Part shown: one piece after another, positions 15,829 through 62,928 of the stretch
Layout of the letters: each line of letters starts with the position of its first letter
Position numbering within the stretch: position 1 is the stretch's first letter
Source of the DNA: Ruegeria halocynthiae
GTDB lineage: Bacteria; Pseudomonadota; Alphaproteobacteria; Rhodobacterales; Rhodobacteraceae
DNA: 64,000 nt
Direction of reading: 5' to 3'
Assembly: GCF_900106805.1 (NCBI RefSeq)
Contig: NZ_FNNP01000002.1
Coordinates: 124,001 to 188,000 of the forward strand
Notes under the pieces: model-generated
Databases searched by the model: none
What the model was told of the DNA's origin: nothing
The model's input: only the letters and a program-made list of their open reading frames with translations
Made by a program: the position numbers and the translations under genes

Positions 15829-15873
15829 ATTCGCTGCACTCAAACTCATAAGAAGGTAATACTTTTGCGACAA

Positions 15874-18945: not shown

Positions 18946-18956
18946 GAGGACAAGTT

Positions 18957-19823
18957 ATGCAGCGCAAAGGTATTATTCTTGCCGGTGGGTCCGGCACCCG
19001 GCTTTACCCGATCACCATGGCGGTTTCGAAGCAGTTGCTGCCGATCTACGACAAGCCAATGATCTTTTATCCCCTCAGTGTGCTCATGCTGTCCAACATC
19101 CGAGAGATCGCAATTATCACTACCCCGCAGGATCAGGATCAGTTCCAACGCCTACTGGGCGACGGCAGCCAATATGGGCTTTCGCTGACCTGGATCACAC
19201 AGCCTTCTCCGGATGGTCTGGCACAGGCGTATTCGCTGGCCGAGGGTTTTCTTGCAGGTGCTCCGTCAGCGATGATTCTGGGTGACAATATCTTTTTCGG
19301 CCACGGCCTTCCGGATCTGTTGCTAGAGGCAAATGAGCAAATGCAAGGCGGGACAGTATTTGCTTATCGTGTAGCCGATCCCGAACGGTATGGAGTGGTT
19401 GATTTCGAGGGTAAGAAAGCACGGGGCATCGTTGAAAAACCCAAAGTTCCACCCTCGAATTACGCAGTAACCGGGCTTTATTTTCTTGATGGGGACGCAC
19501 CGGCACGGGCGCGACAGGTCCAGCCTTCTGAGCGTGGTGAGTTAGAGATTACTTCGCTGCTCGAGATGTATCTTAAAGAAAGTCTGTTGAACGTTCAGAC
19601 CATGGGTCGCGGCTTTGCTTGGCTGGATACGGGCACCCATGGGTCTTTGTTGGATGCCGGGAACTTTGTGCGCACACTCACTGATCGACAAGGCCTGCAA
19701 ACCGGCAGCCTGGACGAGATTGCCTGGACCAATGGCTGGATTGACGATGCGGCGTTGGAAGAGCGCGCCCAATTGTTCGTCAAATCGACCTACGGTGCGT
19801 ACCTAAAAAACCTGCTGAACTGA
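18957..19823 (+). CDS. rfbA: Glucose-1-phosphate thymidylyltransferase
   Basis: First committed step: joins dTTP and glucose-1-phosphate. The 288-residue protein begins with the uridylyltransferase loop GGSGTRLYPITMAVSKQLLP, then has YDKPMIFYPL, the metal-site LGDNIFFGHGL, and the sugar-binding VEKPKVPPSNYAVTGLYF. It is the normal length, and the operon is complete (C-B-D-A). It is convergent with the natural-product operon, about 100 bases away, with no obvious terminator between them. Confidence 0.96.
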   Translation: MQRKGIILAGGSGTRLYPITMAVSKQLLPIYDKPMIFYPLSVLMLSNIREIAIITTPQDQDQFQRLLGDGSQYGLSLTWITQPSPDGLAQAYSLAEGFLAGAPSAMILGDNIFFGHGLPDLLLEANEQMQGGTVFAYRVADPERYGVVDFEGKKARGIVEKPKVPPSNYAVTGLYFLDGDAPARARQVQPSERGELEITSLLEMYLKESLLNVQTMGRGFAWLDTGTHGSLLDAGNFVRTLTDRQGLQTGSLDEIAWTNGWIDDAALEERAQLFVKSTYGAYLKNLLN

Positions 19824-19920: not shown

Positions 19921-20859
19921 TCAGTCTGATGCAACACCTGTCCTCGTATTTTTCTGGACGACATCCCAAACGGTTTCCTGCATCAATTGCGCAGCCTCTG
20001 AACCAAGATCATCCGCAATTGTACCGTCCGCCTTTGCCAACTTGTGCGGCAGGCCGACCGGAGATGTCTGATACAGTACCGCATAGTGTGTGAGTGCAAC
20101 GAGATATAGACCGTAGTCACTAAGGTGAATGTTGTCCGAAAACAGATCACTGCGATTAGAAATGGGGCCGATACCCCCACGGTTTTCAACCTCTCGCACA
20201 AACTGCGCCATGACCTGACCGGCAGGTATGATATAGACTGGTTCTGGCTTATCCTCATATGTTGCGGCACGGCGGAGGATTTCCGTCTCCCAATAGCGCT
20301 CTAGATCATTGTCCAACCGTTCCAGCCAGTCTTCGGCGCCGTCCAACATGTGCCAGGTTTCGTACAGGTAAATGCGCATCTCTGGATTGGATTGTCTCCC
20401 GAGTTGCACCCATTCATGTAGGTATTTTGCACTGTCGAAGTATTTGATGGCGTCGCGTATTTCGACCATCTCGGTTAACACAAGTGTGTCGTAGTCTCCG
20501 GTCGCAATCGCCTCTCTGGCGTCCTGATGCCCCGAAGGCATGTTCCTTATCTCGAATCCGTTGATGGTTTCGTCCGGCTCCCAATGCGCCATCAATGGGG
20601 TGCCCCAACCCAACTGACTGCTGAAATTGTGCTCATTCCCGGCCAGTTGCTTTACCATCAACGGCATGTCAGGGCCAACTAGGCTATGGCCAAGGTGAAA
20701 GACATTTTGTGGGGTAGATGGCGCAGGGGCTGGCGTATCATACAGCGCATTGAAAGCTTCAGCGTCCATCGGCTTGCTCGTGCCAAGCCGCATGAAACCG
20801 GCGAATGCGGTCAATGCAAGCAAGGCGAATGCTGGAACATAGCGTTTAAGTCTGATCAT
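19921..20859 (-). CDS. Membrane-anchored or exported SGNH/GDSL-like protein, last gene of the NRPS/PKS operon
   Basis: A 312-residue protein (ATG 20859) with one hydrophobic N-terminal segment (VPAFALLALTAFAGF), so it faces the periplasm or is secreted. The SGNH landmarks are LGHSL (Ser position) and, near the C terminus, SDNIHLSDYG, giving Asp-x-x-His. It shares this layout, including GHSL in place of GDSL and an ALTHYAV-type helix after block V, with the protein at 13513-14481. The start lies 14 bases inside the PPTase gene, implying translational coupling to the biosynthetic operon. It might acylate, deacylate or hydrolyse the exported product; this is an inference from position only. Confidence 0.62.
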   Translation of the reverse strand: MIRLKRYVPAFALLALTAFAGFMRLGTSKPMDAEAFNALYDTPAPAPSTPQNVFHLGHSLVGPDMPLMVKQLAGNEHNFSSQLGWGTPLMAHWEPDETINGFEIRNMPSGHQDAREAIATGDYDTLVLTEMVEIRDAIKYFDSAKYLHEWVQLGRQSNPEMRIYLYETWHMLDGAEDWLERLDNDLERYWETEILRRAATYEDKPEPVYIIPAGQVMAQFVREVENRGGIGPISNRSDLFSDNIHLSDYGLYLVALTHYAVLYQTSPVGLPHKLAKADGTIADDLGSEAAQLMQETVWDVVQKNTRTGVASD

Positions 20860-21556
20860 AAAACTTGTGCCTGTGCGCTGTTGAGAACGGTATTTCGGCA
20901 AAACCTGCGTAGGTGAAAATAAAGTTCCTGATGGTGATCAGTCGGGTTTCGACCGACAGGGTCTCGGTCTGTTTATTCGCCTTCAGGACAAAACCTGTGC
21001 AGTTTTGAAATGGCAGCTCTAACTCTACCTCGTTAAACCCAATCACCTGCCCGGTCAGCGGATAGAGTGCTTTGTAAATACTCTCTTTCACACAAAAAAT
21101 TTGTGTCGCCAGCCGTCGATGCTGAGCAGAGCCTTGGGTGTCCAGCCAGGCCCGTTCGGACGGGGTGCAGATAATCTCTTCGAATTCAGAACCCAGCGGC
21201 GCCTCTGGTTCAACATCGATGCCGATGCTGACTTTGTGATAGTCATGTGCCACGGCCGCAATACAGATGTCGTCACTGTGGGTGATGGAGCCCACAATTC
21301 CGGCAGGCCAGACCGGACTGCGATCCGCGGCCATTGGGATGGCGTAAGAGGGCAAGTTCAAGTCTTTCATCGCCTGGCGCGCAGCCGCACGGCCCGAAGC
21401 AAATTCCAGCCGTCGCTTGTTGAGGGCATTCGCCATGGCTGGTTCTTCTTCCGGCAACAAGGCCCCATTCAGCGCTTTGGGGTCCGTTACCCCAACGCCA
21501 ATATCTGGGCCAAGTACATTCTGTAACTCGGCTCTTATCTGCTCAAGCCGGCTCAC
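20846..21556 (-). CDS. 4'-phosphopantetheinyl transferase (Sfp/EntD type)
   Basis: Transfers phosphopantetheine from CoA to the carrier-protein serines of the NRPS and PKS beside it. At 236 residues it has EntD-like length. The magnesium-binding motif is VSIGIDVEPE, and the second signature is FCVKESIYKALYP (WxxKES type). The preceding IVGSITHSDD resembles the EntD entry loop. The start is GTG at 21556, overlapping the NRPS stop (GTGA), so it is made together with the enzymes it activates. Confidence 0.92.
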   Translation of the reverse strand: MSRLEQIRAELQNVLGPDIGVGVTDPKALNGALLPEEEPAMANALNKRRLEFASGRAAARQAMKDLNLPSYAIPMAADRSPVWPAGIVGSITHSDDICIAAVAHDYHKVSIGIDVEPEAPLGSEFEEIICTPSERAWLDTQGSAQHRRLATQIFCVKESIYKALYPLTGQVIGFNEVELELPFQNCTGFVLKANKQTETLSVETRLITIRNFIFTYAGFAEIPFSTAHRHKFYDQT

Positions 21557-24500
21557 GCAGAGCGTCTGCGCGCCCGCATCTCGCGCCGCCGTGCCATTGC
21601 ATCGCTGCGGCTGCTGGCTTTATCGGGTGATGGCTGGGCAGAGGCAGTTTCAGTTGACTTTACGCCCGTCTTCTTTTCAACCGTCTCGGCCAACGCCGAT
21701 AGGGTCGGGAACCGGAAAACATCAGTAATGCTGAGGTTCGGCACATTCAGGTCTTTGCGAATTTCACGATGCGCCTGCACCGCCAGCAAGGAATGCCCGC
21801 CAAGATCGAAGAAGTTGTCCCGCCCGCTGATGTCAGAAACGCCCAATAATTGCGACCAGATCGCAGCAATCTTTTGTGCGACCGAACCGCCAGACACTGG
21901 TGCGGCCGCCCCAGGCGTGACCTGAGGTTTCTGATCCACAGGAGCAGGCAAGGCCTTGCGGTCCACTTTCCGGTTCGGAGTTAACGGAAAGCTGCCCAAG
22001 GTGACGAAATGCGTTGGCACCATGTATTCCGGTAGTTTAGAAGCCAGAGCCTGGCGCAATATCTTTTCATCGACAGGCTGATCGACAGTCATATAAGCCG
22101 CGAGTTGCACCAGATTGGGCGTATCTTCGCGCGCGATGACAACCGACTGACGTACACCGGATTGCGCGTCCAGCAGGCTTTCGATCTCGCCCAATTCGAT
22201 ACGGTAGCCACGCAGTTTGATCTGAAGATCGGCGCGGCCCAGGAAATCGAGCCGTCCGTCCGTCCGCCAGCGCACAAGGTCTCCGGTACGATAGAGCCGA
22301 GCGTTTGTTATCTCCGAGAACGGATCGGGGAGGAAACGCTCGGCGATCAGATCTTCGCGCTGCCAATAACCGCGGGTGACACCGGCACCGCCAATATACA
22401 ACTCTCCGGCCATACCAATGGGGACGGGGTTCATGTCTTCGTCCAGCACATAGACCTGCGTATTGGCGATCGGAGTTCCGACATTGACCACGCCCTCTGC
22501 GGCCGTCGCGGTTTCCGTCGTGGACCAGATCGTCGTTTCCGTGGGTCCGTACATGTTTTCGATATGCGCCGGAGACAGCTTGTTGATCTGTTTGACGAGA
22601 GATCCGGGCAACGCCTCGCCGCCAATCATTATGTGTTTTACCTTGGAGAGGGCAAAGCGCGCCTCATCACTCATCAAGATCATCTGCGCCATGCTTGGAG
22701 TGCATTGCAGATGGCTGACCTTATGGCGAATGATCTGGGTAGCGATGGAATAATCATCCTCAGCCAGTTCTGTACCCTGATTTGACAGGCGCAGTACTTC
22801 GGCCAATGGCTTTAACCCCTCCATCACCTGAGCAACCGAGATTCCGTAGTCAATCAGGCAGGCAATCTCATCGACACCAATCCGTTTCAGTTCCTCGACG
22901 CGGTTCAGGCAATCTTCGAGGGTACCGAACAGACCGGAATCCTCGAAATAACGAAGGAAGGCGAAATCGAGGATGCCTTCCATTTCATCTTCGGAGAGAC
23001 TACCCAAATCCAGTTGGAACGGGTTAGACACACCTTTGGGTTTCTTGAAGGCGGGGAAGGCCCAAGCATATTGCTTGATCAGCCCGGCAGCCGAACGCAA
23101 GTAGTCCTTCATCGGCTCGCGTGCGACTTCGCGCACCTCTTCGCGATCCTGCCCAACATAGGTGTGCAGCATCAGAGTGACCTTGTAATCGTCGGGATCA
23201 TAACCCGCTTCGCGCAAGGCAGTGTGGTAGATGCCGATCTTGTCAGCGACCTCTTGCACGCTCTGACCCAGCAGGTGAGTCAGGACATTGGCCCCGATGG
23301 CCCCTGCCTCGCGCCAGGTATCCGGGTTTCCAGCGGTGGTAACCCAGACGGGTAACGTTTTTGAGACCGGGCGCGGTTGCGTAACCACACCATGCATGTC
23401 CCCGGACTTGGTGGGGAACTCTACCATTTCACCGGCCCAGAGCTGGCGTAGAGTGTTGATTGCTTCAAGCATCGCGGGTTTGTTTTCGGGCGGCGTATTC
23501 TCGGGTCGCAGAACGAAATCATCAGGCTGCCAACCCGAGGCGATGGCAAGGCCCGCGCGCCCATTGGTAAGATTGTCGATCACCGCCCATTCCTCGGAAA
23601 TGCGCGCAGTATGGTGCAAGGGCGCAACGCAGCTGCCCGCGCGCACACCGATATTCTCGGTTACGGCTGCAACGGCTGCGCCAGTAACCGAGGGGTTAGG
23701 GTAGGGGCCTCCGAAAGCGTGGAAATGACGCTCGGGCGTCCAAACCGCGCAGAACCCGTTCTGGTCGCCGAACCTCGCGCCCTCAAGAAGCAGTTTGTAT
23801 TTGTCACGCCCAACGCCATCGTCGTTGCCCCAATAGAACAGGCTGAACTCCATCCCTTTGCCGGTGATGGATTTGCCCGGGGCTGAATCCCCAGCCACCA
23901 AAGCACGGTTCTCGTCGTCGCTGAGGACGAGTTTGAACCCGCGCGCCAAGGTCCAGAACAATTCGAGCACCGAAATGTCGAAGGATAGGCTGGTCACCGC
24001 AAGCCAGACTCCGGCAGGGTCATAACTGATGCGATCATCCATGCCGGTGAAAAAATTCGACACGTTGCGGTGCTCGACCATTACCCCTTTGGGCCGCCCT
24101 GTCGAACCCGAGGTATAAATCAGATATGCGAGGTTGGAAGAGGTCACGCCGCTGTCGACATTGTCCGTCGGTGCGCTTCCCAACCGCTCATCCGTGTCCA
24201 GCAGCAGAGGTTGCGCGCCGTGGGCTGGTAAGCCGGATGCCAGCGCAGATTCCGTCAGAACGACCTTTGCTCCGCTATCCTCAAGATAAAGTGCCGTCCG
24301 GTCTGCTGGGTAGGCTGGATCCATGGGAACATATGCTCCACCTGCCTTCAAAATACCCAGTGCACCAATCAGCAAAAGCGGAGAGCGTTTGACATGTAAA
24401 CCCACAAGCGTGTCAGGTCCCACGTCCAATTCGCGCAGGACATGTGCAACCTGATTGGCCAATGCATTCAATTCTGAGTAAGAAAAGCTGAGGTTTTCAA

Positions 24501-26175
24501 AGACCAACGCAGGAGCATCCGGCGTGCGTTCGACCTGTGCTTCGAAATGCTCGTGTACGCAGGTGGTCTCGTCATAGGCGATGGATGTGTTGTTCCAGTC
24601 CATCAGGATCTGGGTGCGTTCGGTTTCTGGAATAATGGGAAGTTCGGCAATCGGCTGATCCGCAGTGAGCGGATCAGACAGCGAGGCAAGAAGATTCTCC
24701 AATCGGGCGGCAAACAGATGCAGGGCCGCCTCTGAAACATGACCGCTGTCGGCGAACAACATGGCCTGCCCGTCGGATGTGGCGAGTGTCAGACTTGTGC
24801 CCGGTATGAGCCCAATTGATATCGCGTCTGCCAGTCCTATCACAGGCGTTTGCAACGGCGCCACGCCCGGCAACCGTGCCGGTAGATCGCAGGCAAACGG
24901 ACCCAGTTCGCACGCTTGAATGATGCTTTGATCAAAGCGTTGTTGTGCGTCCGCGAATGTCTGTTCCGCGGTAAAGCGCACAGGAACCCAGCTGTTGAGA
25001 TAAGGCGAGGCCGCTTTGTTCAAGCAAAGCGCCAGGTCGAAGGTTGAGGCATCCCCAAGGCGCGACATGAGAGTGGCCAGTGCAGCTTGAACCGCGCTCT
25101 CTGCAAGACCTGCAGGCACATGCAGAGCCTGCGATCGCGGAGCGCCCGACGGCAAAGCTGAATTGATCAGAGGAATGTCGACAGATTGCAGCGTTTCCAG
25201 CCGAGCGCGCCACTCCGGCTCGGCGGTCAGCGTATCTGTGATGACCTGATTGATTGAGACCGTCTGTTCGGCAGTCAGCGTGGGCAGGGCGCTGCCGCCG
25301 TTCAAAACGCCATCAGTCGGCACAGGCGTGCCCAGACCATTCTGCAAGTTGCCGATCTCGAGCGCCCCCTCACCGGTGGCGACGGTCAAGCTCTCGGCGC
25401 TGCTGGCAAGAATAGTGCCGGGCGCGGCGTCGGATTGCTGATGGTTTACTCTGGCCGAACCGATCAGCCAGATATGACCATCGCGCTCTACCTTCGGACG
25501 GCAAAGTGGGTTCCAGTAGTCTCCGTGATCCAGCGCACGGACCAGTGAGACCAGTTCACGCGCGGGCTTTGCAAAATCCAACCGGGCCGCTGCCTCGGGG
25601 CGATCGTTTTTGGCAAAATAGCTTCGTTGCGACAAATCCTGAGGGGCCGGAGCCTGACCCGTTTCCAGCGCTAGGATCACATCGCTAAAGCTTTCGATCG
25701 CGGCGCCATAGCATTTGGTGTTCAGCGTCAGAGCGGTTTCGTTGTCGCTGATATCGAACAGATTTTGAGCGACGATGCCACCCTCATCCACACCGCCCGA
25801 GATCATGTGCCAAGTAATCCCGTGCTGCGTTTCGCCATTCAGTATCGCCCAAACTGGCGCGTTCAGGCCCGCATAGCGTGGCAGCGGCCCGTCATGGAAA
25901 TTTACAGCGCCCTTTTGAGCTTTGTCCAAAAGTGGCTGAGGCAGCAAATCAAGGTTGGCGATGCTGAACAACCAGTCAAACGGCGCCCCTTCGATGCGAA
26001 CCAGCAAATCCGGGCCAGGCGTATAAAAGGGCAGCGAATGGGACTTTGCCCAATCCTCGACATCTGAATTGCGCGTGGCCACCCCCTGAATGCTGTGCCC
26101 CGCCTCCAGCAGCATTTCCCCGCATTGAATGACAAGGGATTCATGGCCGATAAGAAATGTGCTGAGCGACATCAT
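21553..26175 (-). CDS. NRPS: formyltransferase, degenerate condensation-like region, adenylation domain split by a luciferase-like monooxygenase, PCP
   Basis: A single-module synthetase of 1540 residues. The ATG at 26175 overlaps the upstream glycosyltransferase stop and has GGAGAG before it. Residues 1-300 form a methionyl-tRNA formyltransferase-like domain with the catalytic Asn92/His94 (VNFHDGPLPRYAG) and Asp130 (GGVDEGG). Residues about 310-510 resemble a shortened condensation domain without an HHxxxDG motif. Adenylation runs 518-768 (YTSGSTGRPKG at 687; SFDISVLEL at 731) and resumes at about 1130-1410 (NMYGPTETTIW, YRTGDLVRW, NRKVDRKAL). Between these, about 775-1128 is an FMN-dependent luciferase-like monooxygenase (FSLFYWGND, AVWTPERHFHAFGG, ASGWQPDDF). 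The PCP serine is Ser1462 in DNFFDLGGHSLL. There is no thioesterase. Formyl-A-PCP initiation is known from linear gramicidin LgrA, and the inserted LLM from the Atu3671/MupA family. The amino acid activated is not deduced. Confidence 0.92.
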   Translation of the reverse strand: MMSLSTFLIGHESLVIQCGEMLLEAGHSIQGVATRNSDVEDWAKSHSLPFYTPGPDLLVRIEGAPFDWLFSIANLDLLPQPLLDKAQKGAVNFHDGPLPRYAGLNAPVWAILNGETQHGITWHMISGGVDEGGIVAQNLFDISDNETALTLNTKCYGAAIESFSDVILALETGQAPAPQDLSQRSYFAKNDRPEAAARLDFAKPARELVSLVRALDHGDYWNPLCRPKVERDGHIWLIGSARVNHQQSDAAPGTILASSAESLTVATGEGALEIGNLQNGLGTPVPTDGVLNGGSALPTLTAEQTVSINQVITDTLTAEPEWRARLETLQSVDIPLINSALPSGAPRSQALHVPAGLAESAVQAALATLMSRLGDASTFDLALCLNKAASPYLNSWVPVRFTAEQTFADAQQRFDQSIIQACELGPFACDLPARLPGVAPLQTPVIGLADAISIGLIPGTSLTLATSDGQAMLFADSGHVSEAALHLFAARLENLLASLSDPLTADQPIAELPIIPETERTQILMDWNNTSIAYDETTCVHEHFEAQVERTPDAPALVFENLSFSYSELNALANQVAHVLRELDVGPDTLVGLHVKRSPLLLIGALGILKAGGAYVPMDPAYPADRTALYLEDSGAKVVLTESALASGLPAHGAQPLLLDTDERLGSAPTDNVDSGVTSSNLAYLIYTSGSTGRPKGVMVEHRNVSNFFTGMDDRISYDPAGVWLAVTSLSFDISVLELFWTLARGFKLVLSDDENRALVAGDSAPGKSITGKGMEFSLFYWGNDDGVGRDKYKLLLEGARFGDQNGFCAVWTPERHFHAFGGPYPNPSVTGAAVAAVTENIGVRAGSCVAPLHHTARISEEWAVIDNLTNGRAGLAIASGWQPDDFVLRPENTPPENKPAMLEAINTLRQLWAGEMVEFPTKSGDMHGVVTQPRPVSKTLPVWVTTAGNPDTWREAGAIGANVLTHLLGQSVQEVADKIGIYHTALREAGYDPDDYKVTLMLHTYVGQDREEVREVAREPMKDYLRSAAGLIKQYAWAFPAFKKPKGVSNPFQLDLGSLSEDEMEGILDFAFLRYFEDSGLFGTLEDCLNRVEELKRIGVDEIACLIDYGISVAQVMEGLKPLAEVLRLSNQGTELAEDDYSIATQIIRHKVSHLQCTPSMAQMILMSDEARFALSKVKHIMIGGEALPGSLVKQINKLSPAHIENMYGPTETTIWSTTETATAAEGVVNVGTPIANTQVYVLDEDMNPVPIGMAGELYIGGAGVTRGYWQREDLIAERFLPDPFSEITNARLYRTGDLVRWRTDGRLDFLGRADLQIKLRGYRIELGEIESLLDAQSGVRQSVVIAREDTPNLVQLAAYMTVDQPVDEKILRQALASKLPEYMVPTHFVTLGSFPLTPNRKVDRKALPAPVDQKPQVTPGAAAPVSGGSVAQKIAAIWSQLLGVSDISGRDNFFDLGGHSLLAVQAHREIRKDLNVPNLSITDVFRFPTLSALAETVEKKTGVKSTETASAQPSPDKASSRSDAMARRREMRARRRSA

Positions 26176-27191
26176 TACTCTCCAATAACAGGCTTGGACA
26201 GGGTGTCCTGTTTGCCTTTGCGCATTAGTGCGCGGAAACAAGCGGACAGATCATGCCAGGCAAGGGTACGCAAAAAATAAGGTGGAACACCACTGCGCCT
26301 ATTTGTGATTAAGCAACGCAGCCAATGCAGAAAGCCACCTGCCAAATGCACGCATGTGGCGCAAGCGGCATAAAATGCTCCGTGGTTCTTAACAAAATAA
26401 TGCAGGCGGGAATCAAACCAGTAAGTCGGCACCCGGCTCCAGGTTTTCATGCCGGTTGAAACAGAACCGATGTGCATGACTTCACTGGGGCGCACGTAGT
26501 CGGTGCGATAACCCGCCTTCCTGGCCCGTCGACACAAGTCCGTTTCCTCGAAGTACAGGAAAAACCGTTCGTCAAAGAGGCCGATCTCATCCAGAACGCT
26601 CTGCCGCATCATCAGGCTGGCACCGGCCAACCAGTCAACCGGGCGGGTCTCAGACGGGATGGGAATAGGAACGATCCGGTTCTTGAACAGTCTGGTGACG
26701 GGCCCGAATTTGATAGCTGCCTCGAATTCGCCGGCAATTGTGGGGAACCGAAAGCTGGTCAGGTGCGGGTCATCGTCTTCGCCATAAATATAGCTGCCTG
26801 CAAAACCTGCTTCTGGCGTTGATTCCAGATGCGTTAGCAACAGGTCGATGGCGTTGGGGCTAGGGAAAGCATCGGAATTCAGGATGTAGACGTAATCGGG
26901 TCGTGAGCCATCGGACAAACCGGCCCGAATACCCACATTATTACCCGCGCCAAATCCGCCGTTGTGCCCAGATTGTATGACACGCACATGATTGTCCCGG
27001 TCCCAGCCCTGTTTCTGAATATGGGTCGAGATAGCCTCGAAAGAGCCATCCTTTGAATCATTGTCCACGACGATGATCTCTCCCGCGATCCCGGCCATCG
27101 CCTGCCGTGCAGCATTGATTGACCGCAGGGTCATGTCCGGTGTTTTGTAGTTCAGGATAACCGTCAGTAGTTTGGGGCCAGACATACTCAT
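26175..27191 (-). CDS. Family 2 glycosyltransferase (rhamnosyltransferase-like) inside the NRPS/PKS operon
   Basis: A 338-residue GT2 enzyme of the WbbL/rhamnosyltransferase group: donor motif VVDNDSKDGS, metal motif YILNSDAFPSP, the WLAGASLMMRQ and GLFDERFFLYFEETDLCRRARKAGY block typical of dTDP-rhamnose users, and an amphipathic C terminus. The ATG overlaps the PKS stop (ATGA) and its stop overlaps the NRPS start, so it is an integral operon member. It probably attaches a sugar to the NRPS/PKS product. The rfbCBDA operon next door makes dTDP-L-rhamnose, making that sugar the leading candidate. Confidence 0.87.
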   Translation of the reverse strand: MSMSGPKLLTVILNYKTPDMTLRSINAARQAMAGIAGEIIVVDNDSKDGSFEAISTHIQKQGWDRDNHVRVIQSGHNGGFGAGNNVGIRAGLSDGSRPDYVYILNSDAFPSPNAIDLLLTHLESTPEAGFAGSYIYGEDDDPHLTSFRFPTIAGEFEAAIKFGPVTRLFKNRIVPIPIPSETRPVDWLAGASLMMRQSVLDEIGLFDERFFLYFEETDLCRRARKAGYRTDYVRPSEVMHIGSVSTGMKTWSRVPTYWFDSRLHYFVKNHGAFYAACATCVHLAGGFLHWLRCLITNRRSGVPPYFLRTLAWHDLSACFRALMRKGKQDTLSKPVIGE

Positions 27192-30100
27192 TCCGCCGCT
27201 TCCTGCAGGGTGGGGCGTGGGCGCATGACCTTACGTTCGGCATTTTCCAGACAGGTCTTCATCTGCGCTGCCAACACACGGACATTAGGTTCCAACACCA
27301 TCGAGTCATGGTCGCCCGGAACCTCAAACACTTCGATTTGCGGTGCCCAGGATGTCCAGTCGTTGTCATGAGTGAGATAGTGCCGATCAGGATGTATCAA
27401 CTGGTCTGGGCCCACTTCCCACTTCCCAACCAATGGTGGGCGGAACAGTGTCAGAGGGCCATCCCACGGGCGCAGCGGGTAAGTCGCCACACTTTCCAGA
27501 AAGGCGGCCTCGATTTCAGTGTCATGGAACTGCTGGCCTGTTTCGGTCGTCTCGTTTCTGGGTTGACGTTTTTCTATTTCCCAAGCGATCCGGTTCTTGG
27601 CCCATTCGATCGGGTAGCTTGCACCCTTGTCGCGCATCTCCAGCCACTGGATCATCAGGCGGTCTCGCTTGGTCAGAGGACGGCGCACGGGCAAGGGCGT
27701 ATCCAGCATGATCATCGCGGCGATCTCTTCACCGGCCTCGGTCAACTGGCGCGCGATCTCATAGGCTGTAATGCCTCCACCCGAGAAGCCACCAAGCATA
27801 TACGGGCCCTTTGGCTGTACCTGCCGCATCTCGGCGATATAATCGGTGGCGGCCTCACGCAGATCGCGATGGGGTTCCTCATCGCCATAAAGTCCGCGCG
27901 CCTGCAGGCCATAGAAGGGTCGGTCAGTGCCTACCAGATGCGCCAGATGGCGCAGGTTCAACACGTTGCCGAACATGCCCGCCACCAGAAAGAATGGTGT
28001 CTTTGGCCCACCTTCACCGGAATGCATCGGCACCAGATGGGTAAAGCGGCGTTCCGGCGTGGCTGGGGCTGCAGAAGGTGCGTCTCCCTCACCTCCGTCT
28101 TTCGGCACACCGCGGGCGGCGATCAGGTCGGCGCATTTACGGATGGTCGGCGCCTCGAACAGGACCGAGATTGGGAAGTCCACGTTATAGGCTTTACGAA
28201 TCTGCGCGAACAGACGTACCGCGATTAGAGAGTGCCCGCCGAGATCGAAGAAACTGTCTTCGACACCGATCTCATCGACGCCCAACAGCTCTTGCCAGAA
28301 CCCGGCCAAGCGCCGTTCGATGTCATTTTCTGGCGCGACATAATCTGAGTCCAACTCAGGCCGCTGAAACTTCTGATCAGTGCTTTCGGTGGATGCCCCA
28401 CTGTCGGCAGCCTGCGCAATCAACCCGCTTAGATCAAGCGAGGACAGGATGATCTGCGACTGTCCGCTGGCGAGCGCCTTGAAGAACAGATTGGGCCCTT
28501 CGGCCGCAGGAATGCCCTGAGATAGGTTATGGCGCAGACGATCTTCGGCTGGGGACAAGGGGGCCGGGGTATCGACCTCAGAAGTGACCGCAGGGGCGCT
28601 TTCGGTGAAGGCGAAGTCCACCGCATCCTCCATCCGGTGGATCGAGAAGCCTTCAACTTCGATGCAGATCGTTCCATCCGGAGCGGCGATGGTGACATCG
28701 AAGCTGGCGGTTTCGCCCTCGGCCCGGTTGTCGCCCGCATTGCGGACCCAACTGACGATCTGCGCAGGCAGCGGGGCAAACACGCGCACGGATCGATAAG
28801 AGACCGGCACCCACAGGTGTGAGGCCTGATATCCCGCAATCAATTCCATCGCCCAGCCTGTGGCCAGATCCATCAGGGCAGGGTGCAGGTGATAGCCTGC
28901 CTCCATATCCGTCTGCAGGCCCTCGGGCAGTGCTAGATGAGCAAGACCTTCATCCTGCCCCAGCGCGGTCGAGGTCAGTACCCGCCAGCGCGGACCAAAA
29001 TTCAGATGCGCCTCCTGTGGGGATCGCAGACGCCCTGCACCCTCGGCCTGATGGGCCGGGCCGCAGCGGGCCGCGATGGCCGCTACGTCTAACGGCGCAG
29101 GCGCGATCAGTGGTAGCAGCGACAGGCTGGCCTGTGCATTCAGTTCGAACGCGTCATTGGACCCGCTCTCGACCGTCAGATCATAGCCGACATCACTGCG
29201 GGGCAGGCGCAGTCGGACCTGTTGATCTTCGCTGTCCGACACCGCAAGCGGGCGCAGGAAATACAGGTCTCGAATTTCAAACGGGCCAGTTTCGCCCTGT
29301 ACCTGCAGCGCTTCAGAGGCCAGCTCCAGATAACCGGTACCAGGCACCAGAGCGTGGCCAGCCTTGGTCCGGTGATCGTTCAGGAACCAACGGTCATGGG
29401 CGTTGTAGGTCGCAGTCAGCAGGCGATTGCCAGCGTCATCGAAACTCGCCTGATCCAGCATCGGAACATCCGCCGAGGTGATGGGTGCGGGTTCAATGGT
29501 CCCGGTCCGCACGTCCATCGCGTCGGCTGCCATGCCAACGTCGGCCCAGATGCCCCAGTTGATTGAAAGAACCTGCGTTCTCCCTCCTGCGCGGGCGCGG
29601 GCATAAGCGTTAAGATAGTCATTGGCGGCCACATAATCGACCTGACCCACCGGTGCTGTCGCCGTCGAGCTGGACGAGAACAGAACCAACCAGTCCAACG
29701 ACCCATCAGGAAAGATCTGGTCGATGACCTGCGTGCCGTGAATCTTGGGGGTAAAGACATCCTCAATCTCCATCATGGTCTTGGTCATGATAGGAGCGTC
29801 ATCGATCAACCCGGCGGCATGGATTACGCCGTTGATCTCGCCGAATTCCTGCATCGCGCTGGCAACACATTGGCGCATCTCTTCGACGTTGCTGACATCC
29901 ACCGACATAGGCAACACTTTCCCGCCAACAGCTTCCAGCTTTTGGATGGCGCGAATACGGCGAGCGATCTTGTCCTGCGGGGCCGAGTTACTCACAACGT
30001 TTTCCCATTGGTCCCGTGGTGGCAGCTCGCCGCGCGCGAGCAGAACGATATTGGCATTCACCTTAGAAACAAGTGCTTCGGCGAGCGTCAGGCCAATGCC

Positions 30101-33100
30101 GCCAAAACCGCCGGTGATCAGATAGGTGCCACCGTCGCGCAGGGGCAGGTCGTCTAGAGAAGGTTCTGCCAGAGCCTGCGGGCGATAGCCCTGTTCAAAA
30201 CGTTTGCCTGCGCGGATTGCCGCTGTGAACGACGCGGGCGGTGCCAGCAGATCTTCTAGCACCTGATCCGCCAGGCCTTCCGGCAGGGCAGGCGCGCGGC
30301 GTTTGCCAGCGCTTTGTGGCAGATCGATATCCAGCAATGCGCAGGTCAGGCCGGGGAATTCGCGCGGAATCACACGGGTCGGGCCAGTGACAGTCGCTTT
30401 TTCCGGGTAGGGCAGGGCCTCATCCCGAACCTGCAATGCGCCCGAGCTCAGCACATGGAGATGCAGAGGCATCGGCAGGTCTTCATCCCCGATCGCCTGC
30501 GCCAAGAAGAACAGGCTGTAAAAGCCCTGCTCAAGATTGCGGTGGAAGAAGCTGCCGCCGGGACGGAAGGTCTCGGCCTGTGTCAGCAGCCAGCCATGCA
30601 CGATCCGGGTCGGAATGCGTTCTTGCGCGACCAGATCGCGGATCAGCGCATCGTAGCTTTCGCGCCCACGTTCCGGGGCAAGTTGATAGTGATCCTCATT
30701 GATCCGCGCAAAGGCATCTCCCGGTGTGACTGTGATCACCTTATGCCCGGCTTGTCTCAAACGCTCTGTCAAGGTGGTGCAGAGTCCGGCGTTATCTGCA
30801 AATATCAGCCAGCTTTCCTGCGCCGCATCTGACAGATCGTCCGTCACATCGACATCGCAAGCCGAATATTTTGGCGTCCAGGCAACGCGATAGCCCCAGT
30901 CGGCGCTATCTTCAGTGCGCATCAACCATTGGCTGGCCGTCTCCGCCTGCGTCTTGCCGGGTTCGATGAAATAGGGCGAACGCTGGAAGGCATAGGTCGG
31001 CAGAGGTACCCGGTTGCGGCGCGCCTCACCCCAGATCTGTTCCCAGTCGAACGTTCCGCCCAATGCCCAAACCCGGCCCAGCATGGCCAGAAAATAGGCA
31101 TCGTCAGCCACATTATCATTTGGGTGGCGCAGGCTGCTGATCACCTGATTAGCGTCCACCTTGTCATGTTGCCCGGTCAGCGAGGCCAGCGCTTTTCCCG
31201 GCCCAACCTCGATATAGATGCGTTCGGGGTTTTCGGACAGTGTGGTGATGCAATCGGCGAAATGAACGGTGTTGCGCAGATGACCGACCCAGTATTCGGG
31301 GTCCGTGGCCTCAGCCTCGGTGATCCAATTACCGCTGCGGTTCGAGGGGAATGGGATCTGCGGCGCCTTCAGTTCAATCGAGCGCAGATAGTCGCCGAAA
31401 TCCTGCAGGATCGGCTCCAGCATCCGCGAATGCGCCGCGATATCTATTGGGATGCGTTGACAGTCGACGCCCTGATTGTGCAGGCGTTCTTCCAGATCAT
31501 CCAGCGCCGCCTGCGGTCCAGTTGCAACGCTCAGGCTTGGGGCGTTGACAGCACCCAAATCAAGGTCATTGCCCAATAACGGACTTAGATCGACGGCGGG
31601 CAAGGGGACGCTCAGCATCCCGCCGGCAGGAACCGTATCGAACAGACGCCCACGCAGGTGCACCAGACCGATGCAATCCTCGAACGACATAACACCGGAC
31701 ACGCAAGCGGCGGTGTTTTCTCCCATCGAATGGCCAACCAGCGCGGTGGGGGTCACACCCCATTCCATCCACAGTTTCGCCAGCGCATATTCGGTAATCA
31801 TGATCAGCGGCAGCTGCACCGAGGGTGTTTTCAACCTCTCATCTGCCGCCTCTTCCTGACCCGGTTTGGGTAACCAAATTGTGCGAATATCGTAGTCGAT
31901 CTTGGCCTGCAGAACATCCAGACCACGGTCCATCCAGTCGGCAAAGACCGGCTCGGTCTCATAGAGGTCCCGTGCCATGCCTGCATATTGCGCCCCTCCG
32001 CCGGGGAACATGAACACATGCTCGGGCGCGTCCGAGATCACCGTATGCGTGAACACCCGGCGCGGATCATTTTCCTCAAAGATCGCGGCGGCTTCCTCAT
32101 GGGTTTCAGCGACAATCACACGCCGTTTCTCAAACCCGCGCCGCCCGTTTTTCAGAGTCCAAGCGATGTCCGCCAGGTCCTGATCGGGATTGGTGCGCAA
32201 GTGCTCGGCCAGTGCCGCGCTGTTGGCGTCCAGTGCCTTTTTGCCCCGCGCCGAAACCGTGAGGATTTGAAACGGCCAATCCGAAGGTTCGGACGCGGTG
32301 CGTTCGGGCGCTTCCTCCACAATGGCATGGGCGTTTGTTCCGCCAACACCCAGAGAATTTACCCCGGCACGACGCGGCCCCTTGTGCGAGATCCACTCAG
32401 TCAGGGTGTCATTCACCCGGAAGGGGCTGTTTTCAAAATCAATCGCCGGGTTGGGCGTTTCATACCCAAGGCTGGGGGGGATCTGCTTGTGATGCAGCGC
32501 CAGAGAGGTTTTGATCAGACTTGCCACACCAGCGGCTGTATCCAGATGACCAATATTGGTTTTGACCGAACCTAACCGACAGAACCCCGTTTCCTGCGTC
32601 GTCTCCGAGAACGCCTGTGTCAACGCAGCCACTTCGATCGGGTCGCCCAGATAGGTGCCTGTGCCGTGGCATTCGATGTAATCCACTGTGTCGGCAGTTA
32701 CATCTGCCATTAAATGCGCCTCAGAGATCGCGGCGGCCTGGCCGTCGACGGAAGGCGCCAAATATCCGGCTTTGGCGGCCCCATCATTGTTGATTGCCGT
32801 GCCGCGGATCACGCCCCAGATATGATCGCCATCTTTGATGGCATCGGAAAGGCGTCGTAGAACGACAACGCCTGCGCCAGAACCAAATACGGTGCCTTGG
32901 GCGCGATGGTCGAAGGCATGGCAATGGCCGTCAGGCGACAGCACCTCTCCTTCTTTGTAGATATACCCTCTGTTTTGGGGGAATTCGATCGTAACTCCGC
33001 CTGCAATTGCCATATCGCATTCGCCAGTCAACAGGGCCTGCGCCGCATAATGCGTTGCTACCAGCGAGGTCGAACACGCGGTCTGCACGTTTACACTTGG

Positions 33101-33631
33101 CCCTTTGAGGTCGAGGATATGGCTCAGTCGAGTCGAAAGGAAATCCTTGTCGTTGCCGGTATGGCGCAACAGGAACATGCCCACATCGTCAACCAGATCT
33201 CGGTTTGAACAGACATTGAAATAGAAGTAACTGCCCATACCACAGCCAGCGAAGACGCCAATGGGCCCGGAAAAATTCTCTGGCGGATGCCCCGCGTTTT
33301 CCATCGCTTCCCATGCGACCTCCAGAAACTGGCGGTGCTGAGGGTCCATAATAGCTGCTTCTTTGGGGGAAAGACCAAAGAACTCGGCGTCAAATTCTTC
33401 AAACCGGTCCAGAGGTGCGGCAAACGGAACATAGTCAGGCCGTTCGAGAAGATGCGGAGATTCGCCATTAGCAAGAAGATGTTCCCTGCTGATCTGGCGG
33501 ATAGATTCCGTTCCGTCGCGCAGGTTGAACCAATAGGCATCGATTGAAGACGCACCGGGCAAATGTGCAGCCATGCCAACGATTGCGATGTCGCCGTCCC
33601 TGGCAGAACTATTGACTATTGAACCATCCAT
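27188..33631 (-). CDS. Type I polyketide synthase, KS-AT-KR-DH-ACP-TE
   Basis: One complete module of 2147 residues. KS: Cys186 (TACSTSL), His322 (ECHGTGT), His362 (NIGHLD). AT: Ser635 in VGHSMGE; the specificity position reads IAAHS (731-735), neither the malonyl HAFH nor the methylmalonyl YASH form. KR: GGFGGIG at 1174-1180, Tyr1333 and Asn1337. DH: His1420 (NDHRTKAGHALVPGTGYLE) and Asp1588 (HPALMDL). ACP: Ser1801 (DLGGHSL). TE: Ser1950 in GGFSGGG with His2108. The KR precedes the DH, the reverse of the common cis-AT order. A C-terminal thioesterase suggests this module acts last although its gene is first, so the chain would start on the NRPS and receive one extension here. The loading partner is inferred, not seen. 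It is the first gene of the minus-strand operon. Confidence 0.94.
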   Translation of the reverse strand: MDGSIVNSSARDGDIAIVGMAAHLPGASSIDAYWFNLRDGTESIRQISREHLLANGESPHLLERPDYVPFAAPLDRFEEFDAEFFGLSPKEAAIMDPQHRQFLEVAWEAMENAGHPPENFSGPIGVFAGCGMGSYFYFNVCSNRDLVDDVGMFLLRHTGNDKDFLSTRLSHILDLKGPSVNVQTACSTSLVATHYAAQALLTGECDMAIAGGVTIEFPQNRGYIYKEGEVLSPDGHCHAFDHRAQGTVFGSGAGVVVLRRLSDAIKDGDHIWGVIRGTAINNDGAAKAGYLAPSVDGQAAAISEAHLMADVTADTVDYIECHGTGTYLGDPIEVAALTQAFSETTQETGFCRLGSVKTNIGHLDTAAGVASLIKTSLALHHKQIPPSLGYETPNPAIDFENSPFRVNDTLTEWISHKGPRRAGVNSLGVGGTNAHAIVEEAPERTASEPSDWPFQILTVSARGKKALDANSAALAEHLRTNPDQDLADIAWTLKNGRRGFEKRRVIVAETHEEAAAIFEENDPRRVFTHTVISDAPEHVFMFPGGGAQYAGMARDLYETEPVFADWMDRGLDVLQAKIDYDIRTIWLPKPGQEEAADERLKTPSVQLPLIMITEYALAKLWMEWGVTPTALVGHSMGENTAACVSGVMSFEDCIGLVHLRGRLFDTVPAGGMLSVPLPAVDLSPLLGNDLDLGAVNAPSLSVATGPQAALDDLEERLHNQGVDCQRIPIDIAAHSRMLEPILQDFGDYLRSIELKAPQIPFPSNRSGNWITEAEATDPEYWVGHLRNTVHFADCITTLSENPERIYIEVGPGKALASLTGQHDKVDANQVISSLRHPNDNVADDAYFLAMLGRVWALGGTFDWEQIWGEARRNRVPLPTYAFQRSPYFIEPGKTQAETASQWLMRTEDSADWGYRVAWTPKYSACDVDVTDDLSDAAQESWLIFADNAGLCTTLTERLRQAGHKVITVTPGDAFARINEDHYQLAPERGRESYDALIRDLVAQERIPTRIVHGWLLTQAETFRPGGSFFHRNLEQGFYSLFFLAQAIGDEDLPMPLHLHVLSSGALQVRDEALPYPEKATVTGPTRVIPREFPGLTCALLDIDLPQSAGKRRAPALPEGLADQVLEDLLAPPASFTAAIRAGKRFEQGYRPQALAEPSLDDLPLRDGGTYLITGGFGGIGLTLAEALVSKVNANIVLLARGELPPRDQWENVVSNSAPQDKIARRIRAIQKLEAVGGKVLPMSVDVSNVEEMRQCVASAMQEFGEINGVIHAAGLIDDAPIMTKTMMEIEDVFTPKIHGTQVIDQIFPDGSLDWLVLFSSSSTATAPVGQVDYVAANDYLNAYARARAGGRTQVLSINWGIWADVGMAADAMDVRTGTIEPAPITSADVPMLDQASFDDAGNRLLTATYNAHDRWFLNDHRTKAGHALVPGTGYLELASEALQVQGETGPFEIRDLYFLRPLAVSDSEDQQVRLRLPRSDVGYDLTVESGSNDAFELNAQASLSLLPLIAPAPLDVAAIAARCGPAHQAEGAGRLRSPQEAHLNFGPRWRVLTSTALGQDEGLAHLALPEGLQTDMEAGYHLHPALMDLATGWAMELIAGYQASHLWVPVSYRSVRVFAPLPAQIVSWVRNAGDNRAEGETASFDVTIAAPDGTICIEVEGFSIHRMEDAVDFAFTESAPAVTSEVDTPAPLSPAEDRLRHNLSQGIPAAEGPNLFFKALASGQSQIILSSLDLSGLIAQAADSGASTESTDQKFQRPELDSDYVAPENDIERRLAGFWQELLGVDEIGVEDSFFDLGGHSLIAVRLFAQIRKAYNVDFPISVLFEAPTIRKCADLIAARGVPKDGGEGDAPSAAPATPERRFTHLVPMHSGEGGPKTPFFLVAGMFGNVLNLRHLAHLVGTDRPFYGLQARGLYGDEEPHRDLREAATDYIAEMRQVQPKGPYMLGGFSGGGITAYEIARQLTEAGEEIAAMIMLDTPLPVRRPLTKRDRLMIQWLEMRDKGASYPIEWAKNRIAWEIEKRQPRNETTETGQQFHDTEIEAAFLESVATYPLRPWDGPLTLFRPPLVGKWEVGPDQLIHPDRHYLTHDNDWTSWAPQIEVFEVPGDHDSMVLEPNVRVLAAQMKTCLENAERKVMRPRPTLQEAAE

Positions 33632-33925: not shown

Positions 33926-35338
33926 TTAAGGCCTCCATGCAAATTCTCGACCGATTGAAAAGAACGCAAGAGGGCTCGTCGCACGCCCCAAGCCATCTTC
34001 ATCTCGGACGCGGTAGTTCAGGCCGGCGTTAACTACCCACTCGGATTCAAGTTCATAACTGTACACTGCATTTAGGTCCGTACGCTTAACCCGCGGGTCA
34101 ACGGCGGTGTCGTCAGTAAGTACCTGTGTTGCCGACAAACCAAGTCGTGATGAGGGGCCCAGACCAAAGGTATAAACGATATCCAGAATGTACTCGTCGC
34201 GAAACACGTCATCGTCGGTAATCACGACATCGCGGTCGAAAAACACTCGAAGCTCGTTTTCGCCAAAGACCTGCTCATAGTTTAATGAGCCAATTGGTTC
34301 AGTTTTGCCACCATCGGTGTGCGCAACACCCAGACTTGCCGACAGGCTGCCGCCAAAGACTTCCCGGCTGCGGCCAACCCGCACACGATTTAGACGCCCG
34401 GCCGTTGCGAGTTCCGTCCCAAAGTCGAGTGTCGCAGTGCCGTTGGTCAAGTCATGTTCAATACCAAAGTCTCCGATCGGACCGGTAGTGACGGTATCTC
34501 CTGCGATATCACGCCGATCATCAATGTCGGTATACCCAAGCCCAAAATTAACGCGCGTGCGCGCCGAAAGTTCGTGAGATATTCCAACGATAATGTCTCG
34601 GGTTCTTCGATCCCTTTGATCTTCGTCATCTTCCTCAAAACGTTCGGCACTAAAATCGAGCGTAGCCGTCGTCACAGGAGACAGGACAAAACTCATGCCC
34701 GCTCCGGCACTGATAGTACTGCTATCAAAAAGTGTCGGGCTTGTTTGGTCAATATACTGGAGCTCCCGCGCATCCACCCGGAAATAGTATCCAATCAGAT
34801 CCTGTCGTCCGAAATCCATCTGATAAGCAAGGTTGTATTCACGCCGAGTGCCATCACCCGTCAGATCGGGAAAATCAGACGGTATCTGCAGAACGCCTTC
34901 GTCATCGACAAAAGTCCTTAGCGAACGCGAAAATCCGATATCGTAACTTGAAAAGTTTGCTCCAAAATCGAGGCCGGCATTGGCGCCCTCACGGATATAA
35001 TCAAGGTCGAATATTGAATCGCCAATATCGAACTCACTGCCTCTATCGGGTAAATCCGACCAGCGCAGCGCAGTAACCGCATCCAGGCTGAGGCTCTGAA
35101 TCGGGGTTTCGCTGGACAATCCGAAGGACAAGATCGTGGACGCAATTGTTCCCTGGTCTTCTTCAGGGACATCGAGGGTGAGGTTTTCTCCGGATTCTAT
35201 GCGTTGCGCAATGCCCAGCGACATCTGAGTGCCGCCAGGGTCCAGATCCACACCCTGAGCTTTGGCTGGATCGCTATTGATTACCACAAGACAAACAACG
35301 GCAAAAATCGTCGTTTGCAGAAGTGACTTTTGCTTCAC
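33926..35338 (-). CDS. Outer-membrane beta-barrel protein of an exopolysaccharide locus
   Basis: A 470-residue protein with a Sec signal peptide (hydrophobic core, cleavage near AKA-QG at 28). The mature chain is made of alternating hydrophobic/polar strands with turns rich in Asp, Gly and Asn, as in large beta-barrels; phrases such as DIGFSRSLRTF, LDFSAERFEEDD and RVNFGLGYTDIDD illustrate this. It resembles the barrel proteins that accompany exosortase/PEP-CTERM exopolysaccharide clusters (TIGR03016-like), but this is by general character. It starts 20 bases after the Wza-like gene, so the two are cotranscribed. It may form the outer-membrane exit for the polymer. Confidence 0.7.
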   Translation of the reverse strand: MKQKSLLQTTIFAVVCLVVINSDPAKAQGVDLDPGGTQMSLGIAQRIESGENLTLDVPEEDQGTIASTILSFGLSSETPIQSLSLDAVTALRWSDLPDRGSEFDIGDSIFDLDYIREGANAGLDFGANFSSYDIGFSRSLRTFVDDEGVLQIPSDFPDLTGDGTRREYNLAYQMDFGRQDLIGYYFRVDARELQYIDQTSPTLFDSSTISAGAGMSFVLSPVTTATLDFSAERFEEDDEDQRDRRTRDIIVGISHELSARTRVNFGLGYTDIDDRRDIAGDTVTTGPIGDFGIEHDLTNGTATLDFGTELATAGRLNRVRVGRSREVFGGSLSASLGVAHTDGGKTEPIGSLNYEQVFGENELRVFFDRDVVITDDDVFRDEYILDIVYTFGLGPSSRLGLSATQVLTDDTAVDPRVKRTDLNAVYSYELESEWVVNAGLNYRVRDEDGLGRATSPLAFFSIGREFAWRP

Positions 35339-43082: not shown

Positions 43083-43096
43083 CGGAGAAAGACGCG

Positions 43097-56723: not shown

Positions 56724-56787
56724 TTGTTCCTCTTGTTCTGGAGTGGCGGCCCGTGATCGCCGGATCGCCAAAGGCTGCGCTTGCCAT

Positions 56788-62908: not shown

Positions 62909-62928
62909 AGGTGGTCGCGCAGCCCGTG

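What the first reader, a model, noticed from the sequence alone, without database searches (positions are those of the whole stretch)
19921..33631. Undescribed-looking NRPS/PKS operon predicted to make an N-formylated, oxidised, glycosylated aminoacyl-polyketide
Five minus-strand genes joined by overlaps encode a one-module PKS with thioesterase, a glycosyltransferase, a one-module NRPS starting with a formyltransferase domain, a PPTase and an exported SGNH-like protein. Seen: all catalytic motifs and gene couplings. Known: formyl-A-PCP starts linear gramicidin; LLM domains occur in NRPS/PKS proteins. Inferred: NRPS loads and formylates an amino acid, PKS extends once and releases, GT adds a sugar, and the SGNH-like protein processes the product. 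I do not know a characterised pathway with this domain set.
Basis: partly seen in the sequence, partly recalled or inferred. Interest (0 to 1): 0.87.

Follow-up and report, generated by a model that had tools for sequence, protein, structure and literature searches.

The report
Polysaccharide-linked peptide-polyketide operon of roseobacters
A conserved set of peptide- and polyketide-making enzymes, known for years in marine roseobacters without a known product, sits inside genes for making a secreted sugar coat, so it most likely builds a chemical part of that coat rather than a free antibiotic-like compound.

Summary
The five genes are real and intact, but the operon is not undescribed: it matches the conserved roseobacter PKS / glycosyltransferase / NRPS / PPTase cluster of unidentified product (Gromek 2016, passage). 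The formyltransferase-NRPS is in 124 of 292 genomes of the order, and in Hydrogenophaga and Shinella and Aminobacter plasmids. In relatives EPS assembly/export genes lie by the cassette in 51 of 60 loci against 1 of 20 controls (reference set partly drawn from these loci). A cassette-type flippase and the SGNH protein occur almost only with it: 103 of 104 and 77 of 78 genomes. Catalytic residues and a glycine-like code are nearly invariant; the DH motif is altered. Best reading: a line making a formyl-glycine-derived, flavin-oxidised, malonate-extended acyl unit for EPS. The EPS link is well supported; the product is inferred. Against it: XrtD is not co-distributed (21 of 82 XrtD genomes carry the NRPS), and no Wzx/Wzy was detected in the window.

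The parts
27188..33631 (-). Type I PKS, KS-AT-KR-DH-ACP-TE (2147 aa)
   Evidence: active-site residues invariant in 118 sequences, DH motif 2 altered
26175..27191 (-). GT2-family glycosyltransferase, translationally coupled to PKS and NRPS
   Evidence: rhamnosyltransferase model far below its cut-off; coupling
21553..26241 (-). NRPS initiation module: formyltransferase, linker, adenylation domain with inserted luciferase-like monooxygenase, PCP; likely true start ATG 26175
   Evidence: Fmt N/H/D 124/124; code DILQ[M/L/F/Y/A]G[M/L][I/V]WK in all 124
20846..21556 (-). 4'-phosphopantetheinyl transferase
19921..20859 (-). Exported SGNH / DUF4886-like protein (from ATG 20859), predicted carbohydrate esterase or acyltransferase
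   Evidence: 77 of 78 genomes that have it also have the NRPS
16449..19823 (+). rmlC, rmlB, rmlD, rmlA: dTDP-rhamnose supply
   Evidence: all four; rmlC
33926..35338 (-). Outer-membrane protein, weak match to TIGR03016 (PEP-CTERM system associated), below cut-off
35359..36072 (-). Wza-type polysaccharide export protein
   Evidence: over cut-off
36460..38889 (-). PrsT-like TPR protein (below NCBIfam cut-off)
38956..39648 (-). Initiating bacterial sugar transferase (WbaP-like)
40414..43945 (+). EPS assembly: ATPase (TIGR03015-like), Wzz-like chain length protein, tyrosine autokinase-like protein
45539..46330 (-). WecG/TagA/CpsF-family glycosyltransferase
   Evidence: TIGR00696, over cut-off
12323..13213 (-). 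GT2 glycosyltransferase; genes whose best reference match is this one lie near the cassette in 39 or 37 of 60 related loci
5614..7293 (-). VPLPA-CTERM-specific exosortase XrtD (local neighbour; not co-distributed with the cassette)

Best explanation
The operon is a cassette dedicated to exopolysaccharide. SHOWN from sequence: it encodes a formylating-type NRPS starter module with a glycine-like adenylation code and an inserted flavin monooxygenase, a one-module PKS with thioesterase, a GT2, a PPTase and an exported SGNH-fold protein, embedded in EPS genes and, in relatives, in Wzx/Wzy-type EPS operons with a cassette-type flippase. INFERRED mechanism: the PPTase activates the carriers; the A domain loads glycine; Fmt formylates it; the LLM oxidises the PCP-bound unit (probably at C-alpha); the PKS adds one malonate-derived C2 unit and reduces the keto group (dehydration uncertain); the TE releases or transfers the short acyl unit, which becomes a substituent of, or link in, the lipid-linked sugar repeat unit built with the GT; the unit is flipped and polymerised, and the SGNH protein adds, moves or removes the acyl group outside the cytoplasm.
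For: EPS genes flank the cassette: any EPS marker in 50 of 60 loci vs 2 of 20 control stretches from 20 of the same genomes (window proteins as reference); with a reference set enlarged by proteins from these loci, assembly/export genes 51 of 60 vs 1 of 20. Directly upstream of the PKS, same strand: Wzx in 50 and Wzy-like in 34 (30 + 4) of 129 loci; directly downstream SGNH 48, Wzz 47. The L044-type flippase at E<=1e-123 is in 104 of 292 genomes, 103 with the NRPS; SGNH in 78, 77 with the NRPS, six of them on another contig than the NRPS. Five of six annotated plasmid regions that I opened (of 75 matching records) show polysaccharide genes around it: Ruegeria (2), Shinella, Paracoccus, Aminobacter. 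Catalytic residues and Gly-like code conserved; PKS and NRPS distances correlate, r=0.90. SGNH fold resembles carbohydrate esterases and an LPS acetyltransferase periplasmic domain, moderate scores.
Against: No chemistry was tested; product and attachment are inferences. No hit of PF13440 or PF04932 lies in the window (whole own genome searched: one weak PF13440 hit on contig 24, one weak PF04932 hit about 89 kb beyond the window) and no window ORF matches the relatives' Wzx or Wzy; PF01943 was not searched genome-wide. No L044-type flippase at 1e-60 in the 17 genomes of the genus shown, the four cassette carriers included. XrtD is not tied to it: 21 of 82 XrtD genomes carry the NRPS, fewer than expected. 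At 1e-60 the flippase occurs without the NRPS in 20 of 130 genomes. 47 of 124 NRPS genomes lack the SGNH protein at 1e-40. Four of 60 loci showed no EPS marker even with the enlarged set. A TE that simply hydrolyses would give a free acid. In a S. meliloti plasmid a 36% identical Fmt lies among transposases and other AMP-binding/NRPS genes. Counts are not corrected for relatedness.
Confidence: 0.62

Rival explanations
1. A free secreted secondary metabolite: a formyl-glycyl-polyketide, glycosylated and exported, whose genes happen to lie in a variable EPS island.
For: Domain logic of an initiation NRPS plus PKS with TE gives a free acid; papers treat such clusters as secondary-metabolite clusters (passages).
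Against: The EPS setting recurs in different flanking arrangements and taxa; near one-to-one occurrence with one flippase type at strict cut-off. Limit: my neighbour scan could only name genes in its EPS-oriented reference set; 27 upstream and 26 downstream direct neighbours of 129 loci stayed unnamed, so an exporter or regulator could hide there.
Confidence: 0.18
2. A specialised lipid, anchor or acceptor: the PKS/NRPS product carries the polysaccharide, or is the acceptor for exosortase-sorted proteins, rather than being a repeat-unit part.
For: The window and some relatives have XrtD close by (12 of the 21 genomes with both have them within about 35 kb, read from the places); a VPLPA-CTERM protein lies near the cassette on a Ruegeria plasmid; the exosortase acceptor is an open question (recalled); RkpA-type synthases serve K-antigen production in rhizobia (recalled, not tested).
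Against: XrtD is depleted, not enriched, among NRPS genomes (21/124 vs 61/168, Fisher p=3e-4); one PKS module suggests a short product.
Confidence: 0.12
3. A small signal or cofactor made by the cassette that regulates EPS assembly (for example through Wzz and the tyrosine kinase) without entering the polymer.
For: Wzz lies directly downstream in 47 of 129 loci and a tyrosine kinase in 17 of 60 and 27 of 80 loci.
Against: Does not explain the specific co-occurrence with a flippase and an exported SGNH protein.
Confidence: 0.05

Closest known systems
Conserved roseobacter PKS/GT/NRPS/PPTase cluster (Gromek 2016, PMC5014874, which cites Martens 2007; the latter not seen)
   Same: Same four gene types; the Leisingera sp. 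JC1 record itself (L175) is among the hits and shows part of a PKS, the NRPS, PPTase and SGNH genes (the GT was not listed by my ORF selection there).
   Different: The passages read treat it as a secondary-metabolite cluster with unidentified product; the word polysaccharide does not occur in that paper's main text. The EPS, flippase and SGNH links are added here.
Formylating NRPS initiation module (linear gramicidin synthetase LgrA)
   Same: Fmt-A-PCP order without C domain; LgrA chains are the best PDB matches; Fmt N/H/D conserved.
   Different: Adenylation domain contains an LLM and has a glycine-like code (LgrA's first A domain loads valine, recalled); a PKS gene follows instead of a second NRPS module.
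NRPS/PKS-linked LLMs (TIGR04020; PuwE; MtaG of myxothiazol, recalled)
   Same: TIGR04020 475.8 bits; PuwE structure 6ket matches the LLM, 343.8 bits; inserted in an A domain as recalled for MtaG.
   Different: Here in a starter module with formyltransferase; in PuwE the monooxygenase lies between a PKS and an NRPS module (passage).
Oxime starters of necroxime/lobatamide type
   Same: Glycine primer modified by an oxygenase domain at the start of a PKS/NRPS line (PMC7318616, passages).
   Different: Those are multimodular trans-AT lines for cytotoxic benzolactones, with methyltransferase domains; here one NRPS and one PKS module.
XrtA/PEP-CTERM-type EPS loci
   Same: Related OMP, export, PrsT, ATPase, Wzz and tyrosine kinase proteins in the window; XrtD exosortase.
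   Different: All six of those XrtA-type models match below their cut-offs; 103 of 124 cassette genomes lack XrtD.

Membership tests
Conserved roseobacter PKS/GT/NRPS/PPTase cluster | Adjacent PKS, GT, NRPS and PPTase genes in a roseobacter | tested here: met
   nearest named genomes are Ruegeria
Conserved roseobacter PKS/GT/NRPS/PPTase cluster | Same product | not testable with these tools
   Product unidentified in print
Formylating NRPS initiation module (LgrA-type) | N-terminal formyltransferase with N/H/D, A, PCP, no C domain | tested here: met
Formylating NRPS initiation module (LgrA-type) | Formylates the aminoacyl-PCP | not testable with these tools
   Needs enzyme assay
A-domain-embedded monooxygenase module (MtaG-type, recalled) | LLM inserted between the two parts of the A domain | tested here: met
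   AMP-binding from 566 to 779 and again from about 1160, LLM 799-1149
A-domain-embedded monooxygenase module (MtaG-type, recalled) | Glycine specificity | tested here: inconclusive
   Code DILQ-G--WK in 124/124 resembles the glycine code DILQLGLIWK, which is recalled; no assay; the second (glycine, recalled) LgrA A domain reads differently
A-domain-embedded monooxygenase module (MtaG-type, recalled) | Terminal module giving a primary amide | tested here: not met
   No C domain found, so the module is read as a starter; the TE is on the PKS
Wzx/Wzy-type EPS cluster | Initiating sugar transferase, Wza, Wzz/tyrosine kinase | tested here: met
Wzx/Wzy-type EPS cluster | Wzx flippase and Wzy polymerase | tested here: inconclusive
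   Not found in the window (Pfam on the ORFs scanned); present beside the cassette in many relatives, the Wzy one by a weak match
Formyl-glycine oxazole starters (oxazolomycin, conglobatin; recalled) | Beta-keto group kept for cyclodehydration | tested here: inconclusive
   KR catalytic residues intact in 118/118, which argues against; no cyclodehydratase among the five genes

The most novel reading that the evidence does not exclude
A PKS/NRPS assembly line is a dedicated monomer factory of an exopolysaccharide: a formyl-glycine-derived, flavin-oxidised polyketide acid is built covalently into the repeat unit, as pendant group or in-chain link, flipped by a dedicated flippase and edited by a dedicated SGNH enzyme. 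This would be a hybrid sugar-polyketide polymer widespread in marine roseobacters and present in Hydrogenophaga and some Hyphomicrobiales plasmids.
Probability: 0.42. Interest if true: 0.82.

Novelty: new variant of a known kind. Interest (0 to 1): 0.58.

Why it matters
The roseobacter cluster has been in print for years with no product. If its product is part of the extracellular polysaccharide, extracts screened for small molecules would miss it, and one EPS analysis of a deletion mutant could settle the question. It would also extend assembly-line enzymology to polysaccharide building in a group important for marine biofilms, and give a chemical role to one flippase type and one SGNH family.

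Tried and rejected
Exosortase link: the window lies beside XrtD, so I tested whether NRPS and XrtD co-occur in 292 genomes of the order; they do not (21 of 124 NRPS genomes vs 61 of 168 others, Fisher p=3e-4), so the cassette is not treated as a general part of the XrtD system. Oxazole starter and terminal amide were considered and set aside because the KR is intact and the NRPS is read as a starter. Glycine code: I could not confirm the recalled reference code; two papers searched for it did not hold it and a third was not held, and the LgrA glycine domain reads differently. Literature: ten searches. No paper linking this cluster to polysaccharide showed by title or abstract start in the listings; subscription papers, Martens 2007 included, are mostly not held. 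Of eight papers opened with matches (PMC7318616, PMC8739492, PMC4062626, PMC4219810, PMC4359443, PMC5014874, PMC13101523, PMC8273931) I saw passages only. antiSMASH and MIBiG were not available. My first 'strong' flippase list was not a clean E-value cut; I redid it with clean cuts and report only those. In one search one KR serine and one KR aspartate were read one position off; the right ones are. In the first form of this report I had said that no exporter or regulator recurs beside the cassette; cannot show that and the line was changed.
Full report
OBSERVATION. The window is C25:124001-188000 of a 4.24 Mb genome in 35 contigs. The nearest named genomes by the NRPS formyltransferase domain are Ruegeria sp. 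ANG-S4 (83%) and R. conchae TW15 (80%), so it is most likely a Ruegeria. The five minus-strand genes are present as described. Domain searches give PKS KS-AT-KR-DH-ACP-TE; GT2; NRPS formyltransferase, A domain with inserted LLM, PCP; PPTase; and a weak DUF4886 match for the exported protein. No Condensation domain is found in the NRPS; a poorly conserved linker (mean 32% identity to relatives) lies between formyltransferase and A domain. PKS residues 941-1102 match PF21394 and 910-1000 a KR prefix domain; I take this as the structural half of the KR.

IS IT FUNCTIONAL? After dropping short (under 1400 and 2000 aa) or identical sequences, 124 NRPS and 118 PKS rows remained of 141 each, the window included. 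Formyltransferase Asn, His and Asp are invariant in 124. The ten-residue specificity code, placed by hand from motifs, is DILQMGMIWK in 73, DILQLGMIWK in 29, DILQFGMIWK in 13, DILQYGMIWK in 5 and four single variants, one of them DILQLGLIWK, which I recall as the standard glycine code. The PCP serine is present in 122 (two gaps). KS Cys-His-His, AT Ser and His, KR Ser-Tyr-Lys-Asn and the second Asp of the LDD motif, DH His and Asp, ACP Ser and TE Ser-Asp-His are invariant in 118. Against a plain textbook module: the residue four after the DH Asp is Gly in 118 of 118 and the His motif is one residue longer than I recall as usual, so dehydration is uncertain; the AT motif AAHS does not by itself prove malonyl. 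The LLM is the best conserved part of the NRPS (mean 77.7% identity to the window).

DISTRIBUTION. The formyltransferase domain finds NRPS-type relatives (E below 1e-50) in 124 of 292 genomes of the order (list, counted). In the class, 10 of 337 genomes match at 1e-30, five of them from the window's own family. 75 plasmid records match at 1e-30; most of the ones counted by genus are rhizobial, and the rhizobial ones listed are only 35-43% identical. One of the records (H15, Paracoccus marcusii from Cancer pagurus, 225,058 bases) fits the 225-kb plasmid whose hybrid NRPS/PKS cluster is reported in PMC8273931 (passages).

SETTING. The window holds dTDP-rhamnose genes, a WbaP-like sugar transferase, Wza, a PrsT-like TPR protein, ATPase, Wzz, tyrosine kinase, WecG, further GTs and the XrtD exosortase. 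In the 60 related loci any of the window-type EPS markers (assembly, sugar and GT genes) occurs in 50, against 2 of 20 control stretches at round coordinates in 20 of the same genomes. With a reference set enlarged by Wzx, Wzy, Wzz and ManC proteins taken from these loci (which favours them), assembly/export genes occur in 51 of 60 against 1 of 20, and any marker in 56 of 60 against 4 of 20 (none: L038, L039, L042, L046); in the 80 named loci 64 and 74, the six without any (L118, L121, L137, L159, L175, L181) all lying on loci of 14 kb or less. Recurrent orders are GT2 - Wzx - PKS - GT - NRPS - PPT - Wzz - tyrosine kinase, and Wzy-like - PKS - GT - NRPS - PPT - SGNH - larger SGNH protein - GT2. 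Directly upstream of the PKS on the same strand, 50 of 129 loci have Wzx and 34 a Wzy-like gene; directly downstream of the cassette 48 have SGNH and 47 Wzz; 27 upstream and 26 downstream neighbours were not in my reference set. The Wzx assignment rests on Pfam (Polysacc_synt_3, 170 bits, one protein tested); the Wzy one is weak (20.8 bits, below cut-off, in one of two tested). Of six annotated plasmid regions opened, five show polysaccharide genes around the cassette (two Ruegeria, Shinella, Paracoccus, Aminobacter); in R. conchae M340 XrtD, rml genes and a flippase lie within about 20 kb; the sixth, S. meliloti, has no such setting. In Shinella and Aminobacter the PKS is divergent from the NRPS and no GT lies between, so the GT position is not universal.

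CO-OCCURRENCE. Over the same 292 genomes: the SGNH protein (1e-40) is in 78, of which 77 have the NRPS; the one exception (G203) has it cut at a contig end. Six of the 77 have it on another contig than the NRPS (G046, G134, G258, G273, G276, G291). The L044 flippase is in 130 at 1e-60 (110 with NRPS), 107 at 1e-120 (104) and 104 at 1e-123 (103); in G002 flippase and NRPS are 1.9 Mb apart on one contig. XrtD is in 82, of which 21 have the NRPS, fewer than expected. These counts treat genomes as independent, which they are not. PKS and NRPS distance matrices correlate at r=0.90; for all six gene pairs tested (r 0.58 to 0.90) none of 300 permutations reached the value; shared descent alone also raises such values.

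SGNH PROTEIN. AlphaFold model pLDDT 93.2; best PDB fold DUF4886 4i8i (TM 0.49/0.58, rmsd 7.4), followed at weaker scores by GDSL and platelet-activating-factor-type hydrolases, an LPS acetyltransferase periplasmic domain, sialate O-acetylesterases and CE2/CE3 esterases. A hydrolase or acyltransferase acting on acyl groups of a glycan fits, but scores are moderate. No PDB sequence relative was found at E 1.

KNOWN OR NEW. Gromek et al. 2016 (PMC5014874; passages read) state that Leisingera sp. JC1 has a previously described hybrid PKS/NRPS cluster conserved amongst roseobacters (citing Martens 2007), encoding a polyketide synthase, glycosyl transferase, NRPS and phosphopantetheinyl transferase, with unidentified product. 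The JC1 record is one of my hits (L175). P. inhibens PKS and NRPS genes Inhi_1972 and Inhi_1974 are listed in PMC4062626 (passage); that they are this cassette is my inference from their numbers. The operon is therefore a member of a known orphan family. In the listings no title or abstract start ties it to polysaccharide, within a library that lacks most subscription papers.

VERDICT. Sequence facts are confirmed; the claim 'undescribed' is wrong; the free-metabolite reading is weaker than an EPS-dedicated role. The product structure is inference.

Noticed in passing
window 46790-50752 (+): UbiA/HAD prenyltransferase, DprE1-like oxidase (388 bits, cut-off 500) and, by eye, a GtrA-like and an SDR protein in a row, resembling a decaprenyl-phospho-arabinose type supply in an alphaproteobacterial EPS locus; a UbiA, GtrA, FAD oxidoreductase, SDR block lies beside the cassette on a Ruegeria plasmid (L204).
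   Followed up: partly
window 13513-14481 (+): A second secreted SGNH-looking protein (motif SGHSL by eye), weakly similar to the 841-aa SGNH protein of a relative (31% over 106 residues).
   Followed up: partly
window 14968-15873 (-): No Pfam or NCBIfam hit; the N-terminal part looks like a sulfotransferase by eye.
   Followed up: no
L069 15967-18492, L051 16045-18573, L091 15628-17370: A conserved protein of about 840 aa (SGNH part plus about 550 residues; no Pfam match for L069), whose C-terminal part also occurs as a separate 580-aa protein (L091), next to the cassette in many Leisingera/Ruegeria-type loci.
   Followed up: partly
L163 15607-20287: In Seohaeicola the cassette is followed by a GT61, an AMP ligase and a PLP ornithine/DAP-type decarboxylase, reminiscent of exosortase A-associated accessory genes (recalled).
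   Followed up: partly
L157 15369-21014, L130 16776-21023: In Hydrogenophaga a GT1 and a further NRPS-like gene (AMP-binding, PCP, C, A in L157, cut by the locus end) follow the cassette.
   Followed up: partly
window 51167-63993: ABC transporter, HlyD at 62929-63993, by eye a second HlyD-like and a TolC-like protein, and a 1283-aa protein with bacterial Ig-like domains: a probable type I secreted adhesin region next to the EPS locus.
   Followed up: no
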